Of a DNA stretch of 23,878 bases, positions 1 through 6,632 are shown piece by piece; position 1 is the first letter of the stretch; every line of letters starts with the position of its first letter. Position numbers and translations under genes: made by a program. The stretch comes from a virus. The notes under the pieces were generated by a model. The model saw only the letters and a program-made list of their open reading frames with translations, had not been told where the DNA came from and searched no databases. The stretch is from positions 1-23,878 of the IMG/VR virus record IMGVR_UViG_3300046810_000208, one strand, 5' to 3'.

Positions 1-439
1 GCAGGCTGTCACCAGTCAGGTCAGGAGCGGCATTCCCTGTGATAAAAACATGGGTCGACCCCGGCGCTAACCCTGCGAGTTTGAAATTTAGAGCGCTCAC
101 GACATCTGATGCCGCGCCCCGAACAGCATCACGGCCATACCTAAGGCGATGAGCCGCATATTTCCAAGACCTCGTTAATGGGCCAATAGTGTCGAGGAAG
201 GAGTCGAGAGGAATACTCCCGTTTGCCCTTGGGCCAATAAGCCTAACATCGAGGAGCTCCCCAATCTCATCCGCCTCAGCCAACGATGCTCGCTGAGATG
301 CAACCCCCGCCGCGGCAGACTGATTTCTGGCTGCCAGCTGGAGCAGAAAATTGTCCGGGTTCGAGCGTGCGTGATCTTTAGTGTCATCAGCGAACTTTTT
401 CAAAGATTGCGCGTGCTCACGAAGAAATGTGCTGCTCAT
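1..439 (-). CDS. Unrecognised partner protein of the nucleotidyltransferase-like gene, partial
   Basis: The frame opens with ATG at 439 and stays open for 146 codons to the left edge, so the C-terminus is missing. A GGAG Shine-Dalgarno sits 8 nt before the start, and the ATG overlaps the upstream stop codon as ATGA, so the two genes are translationally coupled. The protein begins MSSTFLREHAQSLKKFADDT; the first 60 residues are helical and rich in Ala, Gln, Glu and Arg, and a more mixed region follows with the segment GSTHVFITGNAAPDLTGDS near the edge. No catalytic motif, signal peptide or membrane segment is visible. I do not recognise the family. Its position behind cI and the upstream nucleotidyltransferase-like gene suggests one operon expressed in the lysogen, with a possible role in superinfection exclusion or a toxin-antitoxin-like pair. 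That role is inference only. Confidence 0.75.
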   Translation of the reverse strand, partial: MSSTFLREHAQSLKKFADDTKDHARSNPDNFLLQLAARNQSAAAGVASQRASLAEADEIGELLDVRLIGPRANGSIPLDSFLDTIGPLTRSWKYAAHRLRYGRDAVRGAASDVVSALNFKLAGLAPGSTHVFITGNAAPDLTGDSL

Positions 440-897
440 AATGTGATCTCCGCGAAACCCTTGGCCGTGATTCGATCATGACAAAACCCAAGGATACCTC
501 GCCAGTAAGCCTCGCGATGGAATATCTGATCGGGGGGAGGGAGCTCGAGGTAGAAGTCTAGTCCGTAAACAGCTTCGGCGTGAGCATGATCGAAAAGCCT
601 AGACAGGCGATCCTGGGCTTCAGGAGTGTTGAGCGCAGGGTCTACCCAGCGAGGATTCCAAAGAATACAGTCAATATCCCCGGGATCTGCTTTTTCGGTC
701 AGAAAAGATCCATCGAGCCAAAGCTGACCCGCAATTCCAGACGCTCTAACTGCTTCAGCCCAGATCAGGAGTTTCTGGAACAGATCAGCCCGTTTTGCGT
801 CCTGGCCAAAAGGCGCGACCGCCAAGCCGTGGAGGTCATCAAGAGACAGTGGATGCATGCCTGGGGGCAAGAGCGGGGGAAAGTCCGGTTTAGCCAT
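436..897 (-). CDS. Nucleotidyltransferase-like protein (DUF6932-type)
   Basis: This 153-residue protein carries a Pol-beta-type nucleotidyltransferase signature, LDGSFLTEKADPGDIDCILW, around residues 60-80: the Gly-Ser pair and the D-x-D acids are those that bind nucleotide and metal in that superfamily. The rest lacks the extra domains of tRNA or antibiotic nucleotidyltransferases, so it resembles the small stand-alone proteins grouped as DUF6932. I chose ATG 897 because GGAA lies about 8 nt upstream; an in-frame TTG at 915 would add six residues but has no Shine-Dalgarno. The stop overlaps the start of the next gene (ATGA). The gene begins 55 bp after the cI stop on the same strand with no terminator visible between, so it is probably co-transcribed with cI. 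Nucleotidyl transfer is likely from the motif; the target (RNA, protein or small molecule) is unknown. Confidence 0.7.
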   Translation of the reverse strand: MAKPDFPPLLPPGMHPLSLDDLHGLAVAPFGQDAKRADLFQKLLIWAEAVRASGIAGQLWLDGSFLTEKADPGDIDCILWNPRWVDPALNTPEAQDRLSRLFDHAHAEAVYGLDFYLELPPPDQIFHREAYWRGILGFCHDRITAKGFAEITL

Positions 898-952
898 GAT
901 TCTGATTCCATTCAATTTTATGATGCTAGTCAGCTATCTTCGCACTACTGCT

Positions 953-1804
953 TCACACCAAATTCCCATTCCAGACGAACAGGACGCGCGCCTGGATGTA
1001 GGTCTCGTCGATGAAAATGTCTTCGGCCTTGTGCTTCCGGTTGTCCGAGATCATCTTGAATTTGTCCTTGCCCTTCATCTGCAGGCGCTTGATGTACTGA
1101 AAGCCTCCGTAGGAGAAGTAGTAGATCCCATCGCCGACGAATTCCCTGATGCTGATGTCGACCAAGCACGGATCCCCATGCTTGATGGTCGGCGTCATCG
1201 ACTGACCCCAGCCGGTGATCACCTTGAGGTGATAGTGTTCTTTGAACTCAACGCCCATCGAGCGAAGCTGGGAAGGGCTGACGCGAACGTCCTGCAGCAT
1301 TTCCGGGAAATCGTGAGCAACCTCGCCGCCGCCGAGCGCACCGCGCACGTCATAGTGCGCGATCCACACTTCGTCGCCGACCTTGCCGATGCCTGGCTTG
1401 TAGGCGTCGTTTACGAGCACTTCGATGGTGTCGTCCTGATCGGTTCCTTCAGCTACTGACAGAAGCTTTTGCAGACGATCGTCGCCCAGCTTCTTGCCTG
1501 CCAGCATCTCACGGATCTTGTCAGCGGCCGATGCAGGTGCAGGAGCGTCTTCATGTTCAGGCTCGCCATCATTCCCAACTTCAAACGGCGCATACCCCCG
1601 CAGCTGGTCGGTGGTCATCCCGAACAATTCGGCTAGAGGGCGTACCTGCTTATCAGTTGGCTCTTTGATCCCTTTGGGCCCATTGGGCTTGAGGATTCTG
1701 GAGATCGTGGACTGACCAACCTTGGAGCGCGCGGAGACCTCGACCTGGCTCAGGCCGTCCCGCCGCATCAGTTCAGCCAGAATTTTATCAATGGTTTTAT
1801 GCAT
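953..1804 (-). CDS. cI: CI-type repressor, Xre HTH plus S24 self-cleaving peptidase
   Basis: This 283-residue protein is the lysogeny repressor. Residues about 5-70 form an HTH_3/Xre DNA-binding domain (helix-turn-helix near residues 18-38, GLSQVEVSARSKVGQSTISR). A linker rich in Glu, Asp and Ala follows at 72-95. Residues about 145-283 form a LexA-like S24 domain with the serine in GQSMTP (Ser202) and the general-base lysine in YIKRLQ (Lys239). The likely self-cleavage segment is RGALGGGE at 154-161; it has Leu-Gly or Gly-Gly rather than the usual Ala-Gly. RecA-stimulated self-cleavage on DNA damage follows from family knowledge. ATG 1804 fits the start of the HTH domain. Upstream GTG 1867 and ATG 1837 would add a tail with no ribosome site. 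There is no good Shine-Dalgarno at 1804, so the message may be leaderless, as for lambda cI. Confidence 0.93.
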   Translation of the reverse strand: MHKTIDKILAELMRRDGLSQVEVSARSKVGQSTISRILKPNGPKGIKEPTDKQVRPLAELFGMTTDQLRGYAPFEVGNDGEPEHEDAPAPASAADKIREMLAGKKLGDDRLQKLLSVAEGTDQDDTIEVLVNDAYKPGIGKVGDEVWIAHYDVRGALGGGEVAHDFPEMLQDVRVSPSQLRSMGVEFKEHYHLKVITGWGQSMTPTIKHGDPCLVDISIREFVGDGIYYFSYGGFQYIKRLQMKGKDKFKMISDNRKHKAEDIFIDETYIQARVLFVWNGNLV

Positions 1805-1811
1805 AGGTGCA

Positions 1812-1840
1812 ATCGTCGCCTTGCTCGGTGCATACATCAA
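1812..1840 (-). promoter_or_regulatory. Candidate pRM promoter for cI
   Basis: Read leftward, TTGATG (1840-1835) and GACGAT (1817-1812) are separated by 17 bp. Transcription would begin at about 1805, right at the cI ATG (1804), giving an almost leaderless message. The match to consensus is moderate. The placement, back to back with pR and among the GTGCA half-sites, is what supports it. Confidence 0.45.
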
Positions 1841-1852
1841 TAGAGGGGAGCG

Positions 1853-1881
1853 TTGACAGATATGCACCAGTGCATGATCAT
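1853..1881 (+). promoter_or_regulatory. Candidate pR promoter for cro and the early operon
   Basis: A perfect -35 TTGACA (1853-1858) is followed after 17 bp by GATCAT (1876-1881), which matches four of six -10 positions. The -10 lies in the operator palindrome, so repressor bound there would block initiation. The predicted start is 15-20 bp before the strong Shine-Dalgarno of the Cro-like gene. Confidence 0.65.
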
Positions 1882-1906
1882 GTGCATAACTACAAAGGAG
1901 GCAGCC

Positions 1907-2128
1907 ATGAGCGCTACCGATCTTCCGAAAAAACTGGATGCATTGCTTGGCTCTGGCATGACCTACAAGGCCATCGCAGAGCGCGCTAAATGCGACATCT
2001 CAACCATTTTTCGTATCCGCAACGGCCAGATCAGCAACCCCAGCTACATCGCCGGGAAGGCAATCGACCTTATGCACGATGAGCTGTCCAGGCCTGTTAA
2101 GTCGTCCGCTAAGAAAACAGCCGCCTAA
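1907..2128 (+). CDS. Cro-like DNA-binding protein
   Basis: This 73-residue basic protein contains one helix-turn-helix around residues 18-40 (GMTYKAIAERAKCDISTIFR) and ends in a Lys/Ala-rich tail. Size, fold and position, divergent to the repressor and first behind pR, mark it as the Cro-type early repressor. ATG 1907 is chosen because AAAGGAGG lies 6 nt upstream; in-frame upstream starts would translate the promoter itself. Its stop codon TAA (2126-2128) overlaps by 3 nt the stop of the convergent gene on the minus strand. It probably competes with CI at the GTGCA operator sites and damps early transcription. Confidence 0.85.
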   Translation: MSATDLPKKLDALLGSGMTYKAIAERAKCDISTIFRIRNGQISNPSYIAGKAIDLMHDELSRPVKSSAKKTAA

Positions 2129-2331
2129 CCGCGCTTTGAGCTAAGCGAGATCGTCGCCAGCTCGAAGCCGCGCAGAGCCTCTTGGCTCAACTGATCACGT
2201 AACTGACTGGCCTTCTGCTCGAACGCAGGCCAGAGCCTCAACTGAGAAGACAGGGGCAGGGTGGATGCCAAGGCACCCACAAAGCAGCAAAGGGCGGTTA
2301 TCTCGCCTTGCAGTTCGGAAGAGTCGGTCAT
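2125..2331 (-). CDS. Small antisense protein between cro and the CII-position gene
   Basis: This 68-residue frame begins MTDSSELQGEITALCCFVGA and continues as an amphipathic helical protein with a Glu/Gln/Arg-rich second half. AGGA lies 7 nt before ATG 2331, a good ribosome site. Longer in-frame starts up to 2505 run into the plus-strand gene and have no ribosome site. The hydrophobic stretch at residues 12-30 is interrupted by charge only at its ends, but a membrane role is uncertain. No family is recognised, although similar short proteins sit beside the regulators of other Pseudomonas prophages. The gene lies antisense in the early operon, with its stop overlapping the cro stop in the tetranucleotide CTAA. 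Its promoter would have to lie inside the 5' part of the 2395-3006 gene. Confidence 0.6.
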   Translation of the reverse strand: MTDSSELQGEITALCCFVGALASTLPLSSQLRLWPAFEQKASQLRDQLSQEALRGFELATISLSSKRG

Positions 2332-2394
2332 GGATACATCCTTGATCAGTAGTAGCGAATTGGCATGAACCCAGAATACGAACGAGAGACCCCC

Positions 2395-3006
2395 ATGGAA
2401 ACGTCCAGTCCAAGACATGCAGAGCAAACCCGTGATCAGGTGCTGATCGCTCACGCCCAAAACCAGATCGCTCGCACCAGCCTGAGCCAGGACGATTTCG
2501 CTCAAGCGCTGAGCGTTGAGTTGTGGCGTTCACTTCCTGCCAAGGCCAAACATAAAGACGTTCCGAACTTCAACAGTGAGGAGCTCTCCGGTGACGCGGG
2601 TGAATACATCAAGGCAACCGGGCGCTGGTTGAAGCGCGTGCAGCGGTGGCTTTCCGGTGATCAGGAGATGCCTTCTTGGCTGGAAGAGGCTTGGGTGGAT
2701 GCGCTCATTCCTGAGTATCGAGACCACTGCATCAATGAGCTGGCAGGCCGTCACGGCCTGATCGGCGCTCGTCACCTGGACAGCGACCTGTGTGCGAACA
2801 AAAGCTTCGGCGCGTTGATCCGCGCACTGGGCGATGTCATCGACACCGGCAGTGAAGTCTTCGACGACCAGGTGATGTGCGAGCAGGACCTTCCTCACCT
2901 CCCGGCTTTCGCCAAGCAATGCAGGCAGGTGGAAGCGCGGGCGGGTGAATTGGGGCGTAAAGCCGAGCAGTTGATGAGCTCCGGCCGACTGAAAGTCGTT
3001 TCCTGA
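2395..3006 (+). CDS. Early phage protein in the CII/YdaT position
   Basis: This protein of about 203 residues sits between the Cro-like and O-like genes, where lambdoid phages keep cII and Rac-like prophages keep ydaT. A Trp-rich centre (GRWLKRVQRWLSGDQEMPSW, residues about 78-97) resembles the way YdaT-type proteins combine a small helical DNA-binding region with a tail. The C-terminal 40 residues (VEARAGELGRKAEQLMSS) look like a coiled-coil helix suited to oligomerisation. I start it at ATG 2395, which has GAGA upstream; ATG 2365 would add ten residues and has no Shine-Dalgarno. A CII-like transcription activator role is inferred from position only, and sequence similarity is not strong enough to name it. 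Confidence 0.72.
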   Translation: METSSPRHAEQTRDQVLIAHAQNQIARTSLSQDDFAQALSVELWRSLPAKAKHKDVPNFNSEELSGDAGEYIKATGRWLKRVQRWLSGDQEMPSWLEEAWVDALIPEYRDHCINELAGRHGLIGARHLDSDLCANKSFGALIRALGDVIDTGSEVFDDQVMCEQDLPHLPAFAKQCRQVEARAGELGRKAEQLMSSGRLKVVS

Positions 3007-3017
3007 AATTCAGACAC

Positions 3018-3042
3018 AAAAAAACCGCCGGGCATGGCGGTT
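3018..3042 (-). terminator. Hairpin with T-run on the minus strand
   Basis: AACCGCC (3023-3029) and GGCGGTT (3036-3042) form a 7-bp stem with loop GGGCAT. Seven adenines precede it on the plus strand (3018-3024), so the U-tract exists only for leftward transcripts; rightward RNA has just CTT after the stem. It would stop leftward transcription coming out of the replication gene and should be leaky for the early operon. Confidence 0.5.
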
Positions 3043-3071
3043 CTTCAGCAAAGCAGTAAGCGAGAAAAATC

Positions 3072-3929
3072 ATGACAAACATCGTCTCATTTGACAAGTC
3101 CCGAGGGTTCACCCGAATGGACAATTCCGTTATGGAGGCGCTTTCCACCGTCGACCTGCCTGCGCGCGAGCTTCGTGTTGTCATGGCAATCGCCCGTCAG
3201 ACAATCGGGTACCAGGTCGAAACGAAGCGCCTTACCGCCGACGACCTCGGCAAACACACCAACATGCGCCGCGACGTCACGTCGAAGGCAATCAGTCATC
3301 TCCTTGAGCGCCGGATCATCTACCGCGTCGGTGGAAGCCGTGGCGACATCGGCATTTCCCCTGTGTCGGAATGGGTGTTCTACGAAGAAAAACAACAGAG
3401 TCTCACTGAGACCAAAACGTCTCACTGGGACAATATCGTCTCACTGAGACAGGAATCGAGTGAGACCAAAACGGCAACTTGCCTTCTTTATACAAAGAAA
3501 GAACCCCCTATAACTCTTCCTTCGGAAGAGATTATTACCCCCCAAGCTGAGAAGGCTCAGGCCAAGGCTGATCGCAAAAAGCCGTTCGGCCTGACCAACC
3601 TGCTTGCAAACAATCCTCACTGCCTGACCGAGGGCCTGCTCAAAGACTGGCTGGCCCTGCGCAAGGAGAAAAAAGCCGCCGTCACCGAGACCGTCTGGAA
3701 CTCGCTGAACGCCGAATTGGTGAAGTGCGCTGATCTGGGGATCGCTGCTGATGTCGCGATGACTGAGGCGCTCTCCGCTGGCTGGCAGGGGTTCAAGGCA
3801 GCCTGGATTGCCAACCGCATCGCTGAAAAACCAGCCGCTGCACCCTCCGCATCACGACACCACGGCTTCGCCGGTCGCGACTACACCGCAGGCCTGACCC
3901 AGCGGGAGGACGGCAGCTATGCGCTCTGA
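3072..3929 (+). CDS. Replication initiator, lambda O-like
   Basis: This 285-residue protein has an N-terminal winged-helix Phage_rep_O domain (residues about 5-110: TRMDNSVMEALSTVDLPARE, then helices ending in ISPVSEWVFYEE). A low-complexity linker encoded by iteron DNA follows (about 110-165), and the C-terminal region (about 175-255) contains DWLALRKEKKAAVTETVWNS, typical of O-family proteins that recruit the helicase loader. It binds repeats in its own gene to open the origin. Only a weak GAGA precedes ATG 3072. Its stop lies inside the start of the DnaC-like gene (overlap 11 bp), which fits co-translation of partners. The codons over 3400-3545 are unusual because they also encode the origin. 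Confidence 0.88.
   Translation: MTNIVSFDKSRGFTRMDNSVMEALSTVDLPARELRVVMAIARQTIGYQVETKRLTADDLGKHTNMRRDVTSKAISHLLERRIIYRVGGSRGDIGISPVSEWVFYEEKQQSLTETKTSHWDNIVSLRQESSETKTATCLLYTKKEPPITLPSEEIITPQAEKAQAKADRKKPFGLTNLLANNPHCLTEGLLKDWLALRKEKKAAVTETVWNSLNAELVKCADLGIAADVAMTEALSAGWQGFKAAWIANRIAEKPAAAPSASRHHGFAGRDYTAGLTQREDGSYAL
3400..3545 (+). other. Candidate replication origin: iterons and AT-rich segment within the initiator gene
   Basis: GTCTCACTGAGAC occurs at 3400-3412 and 3438-3450, with GTCTCACTGGGAC at 3419-3431, so the three units are spaced exactly 19 bp apart. Each exact unit is a 6+1+6 perfect palindrome. A partial inverted copy, AGTGAGAC, lies at 3459-3466, and GAGACCAAAACG follows both the first and last copies. 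Downstream is an AT-rich stretch (about 3484-3515) with TTTATACAAAG and TATAAC, then a 7-bp hairpin (3514-3530) and more AT (3531-3538). Iterons followed by an AT-rich unwinding region inside the O gene is the lambda ori plan. Melting at the AT-rich segment is inference. Confidence 0.75.
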
Positions 3930-4731
3930 AAAGGTGATTGCCATGTCCGACGTGAAACAGGCCGCCGGCCAGCGTATCCAGCCAGGCCACTGCGACGATC
4001 ACGGCCCGTTCGAACAGCGCGTCACCGTGCTGCTGGGGCGCGAGATCGTTGGCCGCTGCCCTGAGTGCGAACGCAAGGAGCGCACCGAGCGCGAAGCCAA
4101 GCAACGCGCCGAAGAAATCCGGATCAAGCGTGAAGCCATGGCGAAGAAGCTCGGCGCAGCGCTGATCCCGAAGCGCTTCGCTGATCGCACCCTGGACAAC
4201 TACCAGGTCGAGCACGAAGGCCAGCGCAAGGCCTTGGCGTTCTGCCGTCGCTACGTCGCCGCGTTCGCCGAGATCGAGCGCACGGGTCGCTGCCTGATGT
4301 TGCTGGGCCAGCCCGGCACCGGAAAGACCCATCTCGGCGCTGCCATGGCAAACGATCTGATGCGCGCCACCTCGGCCACAGCCGTGTACCGAACTGTCGG
4401 CTCAATCCTGCAGTCGATCCGCGCGACCTACGACCGCAACAACGAGCAGTCCGAGGCCGACATCCTGTCCAGCCTGATCGAACCTTCGCTGCTGGTCCTC
4501 GATGAGGTCGGTGTGAGCAAGGAGCAGCCCAGCGACTTCGAGCTGACCACCTTGTTCGCAATCATCAACGGCCGGTATGAGCAGATGCGACCGACTGTGG
4601 TGATCTCCAACCTGAGCGGCGACCAATTGCCTCTGGCGATGGGCGAGCGTTGCGTTGATCGGCTGCGCGAGGGTGGTGGGGTGGTTGTTCCTTTCGATTG
4701 GGAATCGCAGCGCGGCAAGGAGGGTTTCTGA
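3919..4731 (+). CDS. DnaC/IstB-like helicase loader (AAA+ ATPase)
   Basis: This 270-residue protein loads the host replicative helicase at the phage origin. A putative zinc-binding site at the N-terminus uses Cys25, His28, Cys47 and Cys50 (the last pair in RCPECERK), followed by a charged helix. The AAA+ core shows Walker A GQPGTGKT (130-137), Walker B LLVLDEVG (191-198) and a sensor-like VISNLSG (about 228-234). ATG 3919 has GGAGG at a 9-nt distance and overlaps the initiator gene by 11 bp. ATG 3943 with AAAAGG upstream is an almost equally good start and would shorten the protein by eight residues. With the O-like protein it forms a complete lambda O/P-type initiation pair. Confidence 0.9.
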   Translation: MRSEKVIAMSDVKQAAGQRIQPGHCDDHGPFEQRVTVLLGREIVGRCPECERKERTEREAKQRAEEIRIKREAMAKKLGAALIPKRFADRTLDNYQVEHEGQRKALAFCRRYVAAFAEIERTGRCLMLLGQPGTGKTHLGAAMANDLMRATSATAVYRTVGSILQSIRATYDRNNEQSEADILSSLIEPSLLVLDEVGVSKEQPSDFELTTLFAIINGRYEQMRPTVVISNLSGDQLPLAMGERCVDRLREGGGVVVPFDWESQRGKEGF

Positions 4732-4925
4732 TGACTGTACGTCTCGCAACACCAGTGGAGGCGCGCCAGGCCCTCGAACTGGCAGTCACCATGACGAACC
4801 ATCGAGTGCGCTATGTGAGCGTTCCGGTTCTGAGCGACGACGATTACGACCAGATGCTTGCTCTGTCGATGTCGCGTCTTGACTCGCTCATCGATCGCGC
4901 AGAAGCGGAGGAAGCCCGCCCATGA
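4731..4925 (+). CDS. Small early phage protein, unknown function
   Basis: This 64-residue acidic protein starts with ATG 4731, which shares a base with the helicase loader stop (TGATG). AAGGAGGG sits 6-7 nt upstream. The sequence MTVRLATPVEARQALELAVT is followed by an Asp-rich stretch (LSDDDYDQM) and a helical, Arg/Glu-rich end. No motif names it. Tight coupling on both sides shows it is a real gene of the early operon. Confidence 0.72.
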   Translation: MTVRLATPVEARQALELAVTMTNHRVRYVSVPVLSDDDYDQMLALSMSRLDSLIDRAEAEEARP

Positions 4926-5038
4926 TCAGCCGAATCTGGATCGTGCTCACTCTCATAACCCTGTTAGCTGGTTACGGCTTCAACCACAAGGTGGTGCGGT
5001 CAGCTCAGTCCGTGAATCTGCAGGAGGTTTTTCGATGA
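4922..5038 (+). CDS. Very small single-span membrane protein
   Basis: This 38-residue frame is held by ATGA overlaps at both ends: its start overlaps the upstream stop (4922-4925) and its stop overlaps the next start (5035-5038). GGAGG lies about 10 nt before the ATG. Residues 5-20 (IWIVLTLITLLAGYGF) form a hydrophobic helix preceded by one Arg, and a short Lys/Arg-containing tail follows, so an inner-membrane span is likely. The function is unknown. The two couplings argue strongly that it is translated despite its size. Confidence 0.65.
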   Translation: MISRIWIVLTLITLLAGYGFNHKVVRSAQSVNLQEVFR

Positions 5039-5472
5039 GTGATTTCGCCGATTTGAAGAAGCTTGCGCAAGAAGCGAATAAGGAGTTTCCCGCCAAGGAA
5101 GACATTTGGAGCATGGTCTGCACACCAACTGTGGGTCTTGAGCTGATCGCGGAGATTGAGCGGCTTCAGGGTTTCGAGGCGGCCTACAAGGAATTCAGCG
5201 ATAAGACCGACTGGGTGAAGGAGACCGCCCACTGGTCTGAGCTGGGCATGCATCGTGCTGACGTGCTCCGCAAGCGCGTTGATGAGCTTCAGGCCGAGAA
5301 CGAGGTGCTGCGCACGGATGCTGAGCGGTACCGGTGGTTGCGCGCAGAGACTGGTTCGGGACCGAATATTCAGGTCAGCGAATGGGTTGGCCCGCACGAG
5401 TACCGTTTGTTCACCGAAGAGCTTGATGCCGCTATCGACAACGCATTGAGTGAGGAGTCCAGCCATGGCTGA
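5035..5472 (+). CDS. Ead/Ea22-like early protein
   Basis: This 145-residue protein starts at ATG 5035 behind GCAGGAGG, an excellent ribosome site; the frame remains open upstream but nothing supports a longer start. The first two thirds are helical and charged, with an apparent coiled coil at residues about 78-97 (RADVLRKRVDELQAENEVLR). Then comes ERYRWLRAETGS, a signature common in Ead/Ea22-like and similar accessory early proteins. It is likely non-essential for plating, as other ea genes are, and its molecular role is not known. Its stop lies just inside the next gene (8 bp overlap). Confidence 0.6.
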   Translation: MSDFADLKKLAQEANKEFPAKEDIWSMVCTPTVGLELIAEIERLQGFEAAYKEFSDKTDWVKETAHWSELGMHRADVLRKRVDELQAENEVLRTDAERYRWLRAETGSGPNIQVSEWVGPHEYRLFTEELDAAIDNALSEESSHG

Positions 5473-5923
5473 GAAGATCCGCATCAACTCACTGGCCGAG
5501 CTTTCCAATATCAACGCTGCGATCCGCAACAAGGGCTTTCCCTGCAACGTCACGATCACCGGGGCAAATCGCAGCCTTCCTCAGAACGCTCTGTTTCACA
5601 AGTGGTGTGAGTGTGCTGCCCAGTTCTTCGTGAGCATGGGCAAGACCACGTTCGCCACCGGCGCGCCGATGAACATGGAGAACATGAAGCGCAACTTGAA
5701 ACTCACCTTCCTCGGCGAAGAAGTGGTGCGCGACATCAACCTGAAGACCGGCGAAGTCACAGAGCGTTACGAACTGCGCCACACCAGCGAGCTGGACAAG
5801 GGCGAGATGCATTCCTTCATGACCTGCATCGACGCCTGGGCGCAGGAGCACGGGATCTACCTCCCGCATCCGGAAGACAGCGAGTACATGAAGATGCGCT
5901 GCAATATGGGGGAGGCTGCATGA
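5465..5923 (+). CDS. NinB/YbcN-like recombination protein
   Basis: This 152-residue protein starts at ATG 5465 with GAGGAG upstream, overlapping the previous gene by 8 bp. The segment RSLPQNALFHKWCECAAQFF (about 36-55) carries the Gln-Asn pair that opens the NinB/YbcN core, and HTSELDKGEMHSFMTCIDAW near residues 108-127 matches the C-terminal helical part. Lambda NinB (Orf) binds single-stranded DNA and helps recombinases load. The gene stands beside ninG, as in the lambda nin region. The family assignment rests on motif memory and position, so alternative naming is possible. Confidence 0.65.
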   Translation: MAEKIRINSLAELSNINAAIRNKGFPCNVTITGANRSLPQNALFHKWCECAAQFFVSMGKTTFATGAPMNMENMKRNLKLTFLGEEVVRDINLKTGEVTERYELRHTSELDKGEMHSFMTCIDAWAQEHGIYLPHPEDSEYMKMRCNMGEAA

Positions 5924-6018
5924 AGACCATCAATGCTCTTATCAGCGCGTTGGCGAGCATCCTCGAAGCCGGGTATCACGCTCAGCCCATGTCGGTTCAG
6001 TTCGGGGGTGGGCTTTGA
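5920..6018 (+). CDS. Tiny coupled protein between ninB-like and ninG
   Basis: This 32-residue frame, MKTINALISALASILEAGYH and onward, has GGGGGAGG 4-5 nt before its ATG. The start overlaps the NinB-like stop (ATGA), and its stop overlaps the TTG start of NinG (TTGA). The first 20 residues are a predicted amphipathic or hydrophobic helix; the end is Gly-rich (QFGGGL). It may work mainly as a translational coupler for NinG, or be a small membrane-active protein. Confidence 0.5.
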   Translation: MKTINALISALASILEAGYHAQPMSVQFGGGL

Positions 6019-6632
6019 TCGGACAGGCAGTTAAGAAGTCGCCACCGGCACGTAAGCAAAAGACCTGCGCCAATCCGGAATGCGCCACCAAGTTCGTGCC
6101 GGCCAAGCTGGGGCAGAAGGTTTGCGGCTGGGCGTGCGGCCTTGCCATCGCTCCGGCGAATCAGGACAAGGCCCGCAAGGCGCTGGCACAGATCGAGCGC
6201 AAGGAAGTCAGGGCACGCAAGGAGAAGCTGAAGAGCAGGGCAGAGCACATGCGCGAAGCTCAGACAGAGTTCAACGCCTTCATCCGTCTCCGTGACGCGC
6301 ACCGGCCATGCATCAGCTGCGACTCGATCGCCACGGATGATGGGTTGATCACCGGCAGCCGCTGGGACGCCGGCCACTACCGATCAGTCGGCGCCTGTCC
6401 TGAGCTGCGATTCGAGCCGTTCAACGTCCACCGCCAGTGCGTGCGTTGTAACCGCAACCTGTCCGGCAACGCTGTCGAGTACCGCATCCGACTGATGACC
6501 AGGATCGGTGCTGAGAGGCTGGCATGGCTCGAAGGCCGTCATGAAGCACGCAAATACACCATCTCGGACCTGCAAGACATTAAGGCGCAGTACCGGGCGA
6601 AAATCAGAGAGCTGAAGGGGAGAGCAGCATGA
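6015..6632 (+). CDS. ninG: NinG (Rap) recombination protein
   Basis: This 205-residue protein matches the NinG/Rap family in length and plan. An N-terminal zinc knuckle uses Cys18, Cys23, Cys37 and Cys41. A basic coiled helix follows (about 50-85), then FIRLRDAHRPCISCD, the conserved GSRWDAGHYRSVGACPELRF and the second CxxC block HRQCVRCNRNLSGN. Lambda Rap is a Holliday-junction endonuclease that acts with Red or RecBCD recombination. The frame has only a TTG start at 6015 before the conserved region, coupled to the upstream stop, with GGGGGTGG just before it as a modest ribosome site. Its stop overlaps the next start (ATGA at 6629). Confidence 0.92.
   Translation: MIGQAVKKSPPARKQKTCANPECATKFVPAKLGQKVCGWACGLAIAPANQDKARKALAQIERKEVRARKEKLKSRAEHMREAQTEFNAFIRLRDAHRPCISCDSIATDDGLITGSRWDAGHYRSVGACPELRFEPFNVHRQCVRCNRNLSGNAVEYRIRLMTRIGAERLAWLEGRHEARKYTISDLQDIKAQYRAKIRELKGRAA

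What the first reader, a model, noticed from the sequence alone, without database searches (positions are those of the whole stretch)
1..952. Two-gene nucleotidyltransferase module in the rexAB position behind cI
Directly seen: a Pol-beta-type motif protein (436-897) and an unrecognised partner (1-439) are coupled by ATGA and lie 55 bp behind the cI stop, same strand, with no terminator between. Known: in lambda the genes at this place (rexA, rexB) are made in the lysogen and exclude other phages, and nucleotidyltransferases such as MenT/MNT act in defence or toxin-antitoxin pairs. Inference: this pair may be a new lysogen-expressed exclusion or abortive-infection system, with the nucleotidyltransferase modifying either its partner or a cellular target. 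This is the strongest candidate in the window.
Basis: partly seen in the sequence, partly recalled or inferred. Interest (0 to 1): 0.75.

Follow-up and report, generated by a model that had tools for sequence, protein, structure and literature searches.

The report
Nucleotidyltransferase gene pair behind phage repressor
Directly behind a prophage's repressor gene sits a two-gene unit, a small nucleotidyltransferase plus a partner with a nucleic-acid-binding-type domain, that recurs as a pair across bacteria and in phages of four unrelated hosts; it is probably a lysogen-expressed anti-phage module, but no one has yet shown that it protects cells.

Summary
Gene A (436-897, minus) and gene B (cut off at the window edge; 304 aa in an identical contig) overlap by ATGA and lie 55 bp behind cI. 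The pair is not new: A is Pfam DUF6932/PADLOC PDC-M63A and B is PDC-M63B, a catalogued "phage defence candidate".

New here: (1) Linkage is nearly obligatory: 121 of 130 distinct A genes have B next, and in 398 Pseudomonadota genomes all 12 confident B genes lie beside A. (2) The pair sits behind the repressor in phages of Pseudomonas, E. coli, Erwinia and Mycobacterium abscessus; most chromosomal copies stand alone. (3) A keeps a nucleotidyltransferase active site; B has no conserved catalytic residues, no HEPN motif, no membrane helix, and ends in an OB fold. (4) Some DUF6932 genes are coupled instead to HTH-ImmA/IrrE protease fusions.

Most likely A is the effector and B its nucleic-acid-binding sensor or restraint, made by the lysogen. 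Defence is unproven: deletion in E. coli NILS69 (10 virulent phages) had no effect, and deleting NC101 prophage NC-SV, which carries the pair, changed plaque numbers for none of 4. Classical HEPN-MNT, MenT/AbiE and RexAB membership are each rejected.

The parts
436..897 (-). Gene A, 153-aa DUF6932 / PDC-M63A nucleotidyltransferase
   Evidence: Pfam PF22014 6e-28; phrog_9194 2e-25; PADLOC PDC-M63A 1e-31; AF2 pLDDT 97.1
1..439 (-). Gene B, first 146 aa of the 304-aa PDC-M63B partner (cut by the window edge)
   Evidence: PADLOC PDC-M63B 1e-21; phrog_6603 7e-16; full length in the identical contig L009:5001-5915; AF2 pLDDT 94.4
436..439 (-). ATGA stop/start overlap of A and B (translational coupling)
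   Evidence: sequence; a 4-nt overlap in 89 of 130 distinct loci
670..720 (-). Active-site motif of A, residues 60-76: WLDGSFLTEKADPGDID (GSX9DXD form)
   Evidence: W60, D62, G63, T67, K69, D74 in 95/95; S64 and D76 in 94/95
556..558 (-). Probable third metal ligand of A, Asp114 (His in 14 of 95 homologues)
   Evidence: D in 77/95, H in 14/95; on the strand at 113-118 of the model
898..952 (-). 55-bp spacer between cI and A, without a strong terminator or sigma-70-like promoter
953..1867 (-). cI-type repressor (HTH + Peptidase S24), upstream gene of the unit; likely real start at 1804
   Evidence: Pfam Peptidase_S24 2e-13, HTH_3 5e-5; phrog_4 9e-32

Best explanation
A two-gene anti-phage (exclusion or abortive-infection) module made by the lysogen from the repressor transcript. 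A is a nucleotidyltransferase effector that, when active, transfers a nucleotide to a host molecule needed for growth; tRNA 3' ends are the likeliest class of target, by analogy only. B is a non-enzymatic partner with a helical hairpin, an alpha/beta body and a C-terminal OB fold. It binds A together with nucleic acid and either restrains A until infection or brings A to its target. Shown: the pair, the coupling, the site behind the repressor, the preserved active site of A and the lack of a conserved active site in B. Inferred: co-transcription with cI, complex formation, nucleic-acid binding, the target, and defence itself.
For: Repressor-A-B order in phages of Pseudomonas (window, L002), E. 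coli (PhiR30_1, mEpX1), Erwinia and M. abscessus, where repressor, A and B all overlap by 4 nt. Of 50 genes upstream of A in distinct viral loci, 29 match HTH_3 and 20 Peptidase_S24; in chromosomal loci HTH_3 matches 3 of 53, so the pair is a mobile unit that phages place behind the repressor. 121 of 130 distinct A genes have B next, 89 with a 4-nt overlap; all 12 B hits with E<1e-4 in 398 genomes lie beside A; A and B distances correlate at r=0.86 against a maximum of 0.09 in 500 permutations. The active site of A is near-invariant in 95 sequences, while in B only G127, S128, G173, W198 and G236 pass 90%. Foldseek: A to MNT proteins (weak), B C-terminus to OB folds of IF1, SSB and RuvA. Partner exchange: DUF6932 genes coupled to HTH + M78 protease fusions, which fits A as the constant working part. 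An IS element that removes the first ~53 aa of A leaves B intact.
Against: PDC-M63AB deletion in E. coli NILS69 did not change infection by 10 virulent phages. Deleting NC101 prophage NC-SV, which carries the pair, changed plaque counts of none of 4 virulent phages. Defence genes near chromosomal copies were scattered, not dense, and no control was run. No enzymatic, expression or toxicity data exist. The fold match of A is weak (best E 0.055).
Confidence: 0.45

Rival explanations
1. Toxin-antitoxin pair of the MNT-HEPN logic: B is the toxin and A silences it by adding a nucleotide to it, for example at the near-invariant Ser128.
For: The best Foldseek hit of A is an MNT antitoxin in a HEPN complex (7ae9, E 0.055). 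B never occurs with confidence away from A. Ser128 is kept in 89 of 91 B proteins.
Against: B has no HEPN RX4-6H motif: 59 of 91 rows match against 58.2 in shuffles, and no His column exceeds 26 of 91. No conserved catalytic residues in B. E. coli KL53 has lost the start of A to an IS element with B intact. Prophage NC-SV could be deleted without growth defect.
Confidence: 0.2
2. A module that tunes the phage's own lysogeny or induction, acting with the neighbouring repressor.
For: Position behind cI and full translational coupling to the repressor in M. abscessus prophages; relatives coupled to HTH-ImmA proteases, a known repressor-inactivating type.
Against: Many chromosomal copies, across many phyla and one archaeon, have no repressor beside them.
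Confidence: 0.15
3. An RNA or tRNA repair or modification pair that helps the lysogen or its phage, such as restoring tRNA ends, with B as the RNA-binding subunit; not toxic at all.
For: A nucleotidyltransferase with an OB-fold partner also fits a repair enzyme.
Against: The patchy, mobile distribution (18 of 398 genomes) and the repressor-operon site are not typical of repair genes; no CCA-adding or RNA-ligase family is matched.
Confidence: 0.1

Closest known systems
PADLOC candidate system PDC-M63 (PDC-M63A + PDC-M63B)
   Same: Both genes match the two models, in the same order and adjacent.
   Different: Nothing essential: this is a member. The candidate has no demonstrated activity; the one deletion test found was negative (PMC12409345).
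HEPN-MNT (HepT/MntA) type VII toxin-antitoxin
   Same: Small nucleotidyltransferase with a GS..DxD motif next to a partner gene; nearest solved fold (weak).
   Different: The window protein has GSX9DXD, not GSX10DXD, and matches no MNT Pfam model at E<=1. B (304 aa) lacks RX4-6H and carries an OB fold.
MenAT / AbiE nucleotidyltransferase toxin-antitoxin
   Same: Nucleotidyltransferase as the likely active part; partner families vary (PMC10435456).
   Different: No DUF1814 match; no winged helix-turn-helix family is matched in B.
Lambda RexAB and Pseudomonas putida RexAB-type system
   Same: Two genes behind the repressor in prophages; probable exclusion role.
   Different: No membrane protein (highest 19-residue hydropathy 1.09 and 0.89); A is a nucleotidyltransferase.
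DUF6575-domain phage protein A0A8S5QA00
   Same: Best structural match of B (BFVD E 7.7e-15, 18% identity).
   Different: B matches no Pfam DUF6575 model; whether that protein is paired with a nucleotidyltransferase was not tested.

Membership tests
PDC-M63 (PADLOC) | A matches PDC-M63A and B matches PDC-M63B, adjacent | tested here: met
   1e-31 and 1e-21; ATGA overlap
PDC-M63 (PADLOC) | Protects against phage | not testable with these tools
   Literature: no effect in NILS69 against 10 virulent phages
HEPN-MNT toxin-antitoxin | NTP_transf_2-type MNT with GSX10DXD | tested here: not met
   No PF01909 match at E<=1; the motif is GSX9DXD
HEPN-MNT toxin-antitoxin | Partner with a HEPN RX4-6H motif | tested here: not met
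   59/91 rows against 58.2 in shuffles; no conserved His
MenT / AbiEii | DUF1814 domain | tested here: not met
   Pfam returned only DUF6932 for A
RexAB | Location directly behind the phage repressor | tested here: met
RexAB | A membrane effector (RexB) | tested here: not met
   Highest 19-residue Kyte-Doolittle mean 1.09 (A) and 0.89 (B)
RexAB | Expressed in the lysogen and excludes other phages | not testable with these tools
Nucleotidyltransferase (Pol-beta-like) superfamily | G[SG]...DxD plus a third acidic residue | tested here: met
   G63, D74 95/95; S64, D76 94/95; D114 77/95 with His in 14; fold match weak

The most novel reading that the evidence does not exclude
A further class of nucleotidyltransferase immunity module, separate from HEPN-MNT and MenAT/AbiE: one effector family (DUF6932) coupled to interchangeable sensors, either an OB-fold nucleic-acid-binding protein (B) or an HTH-ImmA/IrrE protease fusion, and favoured by temperate phages as the cargo behind their repressor.
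Probability: 0.3. Interest if true: 0.75.

Novelty: new member of a known kind. Interest (0 to 1): 0.5.

Why it matters
The slot behind the repressor is read in the silent prophage, so what recurs there in unrelated phages is likely to matter for the lysogen. This pair recurs there from Pseudomonas to Mycobacterium, occurs in about 2% of complete E. coli genomes (96 and 18 of 5426 for two versions), and is unstudied beyond two deletions with no effect on plaque numbers. Two phages, mEpX1 and PhiR30_1, are recorded from E. coli K-12 and E. coli C, so the question can be settled in standard strains.

Tried and rejected
Sequence search of solved structures with either protein or profile found nothing convincing. 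HEPN motif in B: rejected. RexB-like membrane protein: rejected. Rfam over window 1-6000: nothing. An all-family alignment (A1) was too diverse for a genome scan; a narrower one worked. Defence-island test by PADLOC on 115 neighbours of chromosomal copies: a few scattered hits (SoFic, TIR proteins, methyltransferases, PDC-S02), no control, so no claim. Apparent A-only loci looked at one by one: L114 and L148 keep a truncated start of B, L126 has a broken A, L029 ends at the contig edge, L176 has a TPR protein with a B-like start, L019 has an ImmA gene nearby; L117, L150 and L177 have no recognisable partner.

Full report
Observation. The window is an IMG/VR viral record. The local gene order is lambda-like: cI on the minus strand, then on the plus strand a Cro-like gene, a CII-like gene, an O-like gene, a DnaC-like loader and NinB; cI DNA is 74% identical to that of Pseudomonas phage VW-6S over part of its length. 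Behind cI lie A (436-897) and B (from 439 leftwards), overlapping by ATGA, 55 bp after the cI stop. A 49-kb contig with identical A and B supplies the rest of B: 304 aa.

Identity. A is Pfam DUF6932, phrog_9194 and PADLOC PDC-M63A; B is phrog_6603 and PADLOC PDC-M63B. The pair is therefore a catalogued candidate defence system without known mechanism. No paper in the library names DUF6932. One names PDC-M63: deletion in E. coli NILS69 had no effect on 10 virulent phages.

Linkage. From 80 viral and 80 genome loci plus annotated phages, 130 distinct A genes were taken; 121 have B immediately downstream and 89 use a 4-nt overlap. To avoid search bias, 398 Pseudomonadota genomes were searched with each profile: A at 19 places in 18 genomes; all 12 B hits with E<1e-4 lie next to A, and one more B was found by reading the locus. 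A and B distance matrices correlate at r=0.86, against a permuted maximum of 0.09, as expected for genes inherited together.

Place. In annotated phages the order is repressor-A-B in E. coli PhiR30_1 and mEpX1, Erwinia vB_EhrS_59 and M. abscessus prophages; in the last, all three genes overlap by 4 nt. In viral loci 29 of 50 upstream genes are HTH_3 and 20 Peptidase_S24; in chromosomal loci HTH_3 matches 3 of 53. Related cI genes are followed by other, unknown genes in phages VW-6S and D14O, and a RexAB-type pair lies downstream of the repressor, two genes away, in a P. putida prophage (PMC12894663), so this is a cargo slot.

Structure. A models at pLDDT 97.1 as a small alpha/beta nucleotidyltransferase; the closest solved folds are MNT proteins and Pol beta, but weakly (best E 0.055). 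R36, W60, D62, G63, T67, K69 and D74 are invariant in 95 sequences, D76 in 94; the third ligand D114 is His in a subgroup of 14. B models at pLDDT 94.4: helical hairpin, alpha/beta body, C-terminal OB fold; the best viral match is a DUF6575-domain protein. B has no invariant position, and those above 90% are G127, S128, G173, W198 and G236: it looks like a binding protein, not an enzyme. That is an inference from conservation and fold.

Partner exchange. Three DUF6932 genes in the unbiased sample (L190-L192) are coupled by 4-8 nt overlaps to HTH_3 + Peptidase_M78 (ImmA/IrrE) fusions in place of B; in Streptococcus phage MissE1 an ImmA/IrrE gene follows A after a 55-aa ORF. HTH-COG2856 fusions are known companions of toxins (PMC2701414). 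A is thus the constant part, which favours A as effector and the partners as sensors or restraints.

Function. Prophage NC-SV of E. coli NC101 sits at icd (PMC12803456); the pair in NC101 lies in the prophage whose integrase gene adjoins icd, so by inference NC-SV carries it. Deleting NC-SV gave no growth defect and no change in plaque counts for four virulent phages; the plaque-size effect on two of them was assigned to an sRNA at the cI 3' end. Together with NILS69 this speaks against a strong addiction module and leaves defence open, since only virulent dsDNA phages were tested in NILS69 and only four virulent phages in NC101.

Verdict. A real, conserved, catalogued but uncharacterised phage-borne module. 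Defence by an A effector under B control is the best single explanation (0.45); toxin-antitoxin with A silencing B 0.2; lysogeny control 0.15; RNA repair 0.1.

Noticed in passing
L190:1895-3633, L191:130-2038, L192:1968-3892: DUF6932 nucleotidyltransferase genes coupled to HTH + ImmA/IrrE protease fusions in place of B: a second partner type for this family.
   Followed up: partly
A homologues in L034, L035, L136, L138, L142, L147, L149, L152, L153, L157, L158, L171-L173: The third metal-ligand Asp of A is replaced by His in 14 of 95 homologues while the GS..DxD part of the active site is intact.
   Followed up: no
L184 (E. coli NC101) 4227-6403: The pair lies in prophage NC-SV, in which a published phage-resistance effect is assigned to an sRNA (svsR) at the 3' end of cI, directly in front of A.
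   Followed up: partly
L185 (E. coli KL53) 1779-4248; L183 (E. coli OkiPb01716) 2298-4961: Natural insertions: an IS4-type element removes the start of A with B intact; an IS3 sits between A and B, both still annotated as genes.
   Followed up: partly
L176:4067-5113: Downstream of an A homologue, a protein that begins like the B helical hairpin and continues as TPR repeats.
   Followed up: no
window 1910-5923 (+): Ordinary lambda-like order beyond cI: Cro-like, CII-like, O-like, DnaC-like loader, NinB.
   Followed up: yes
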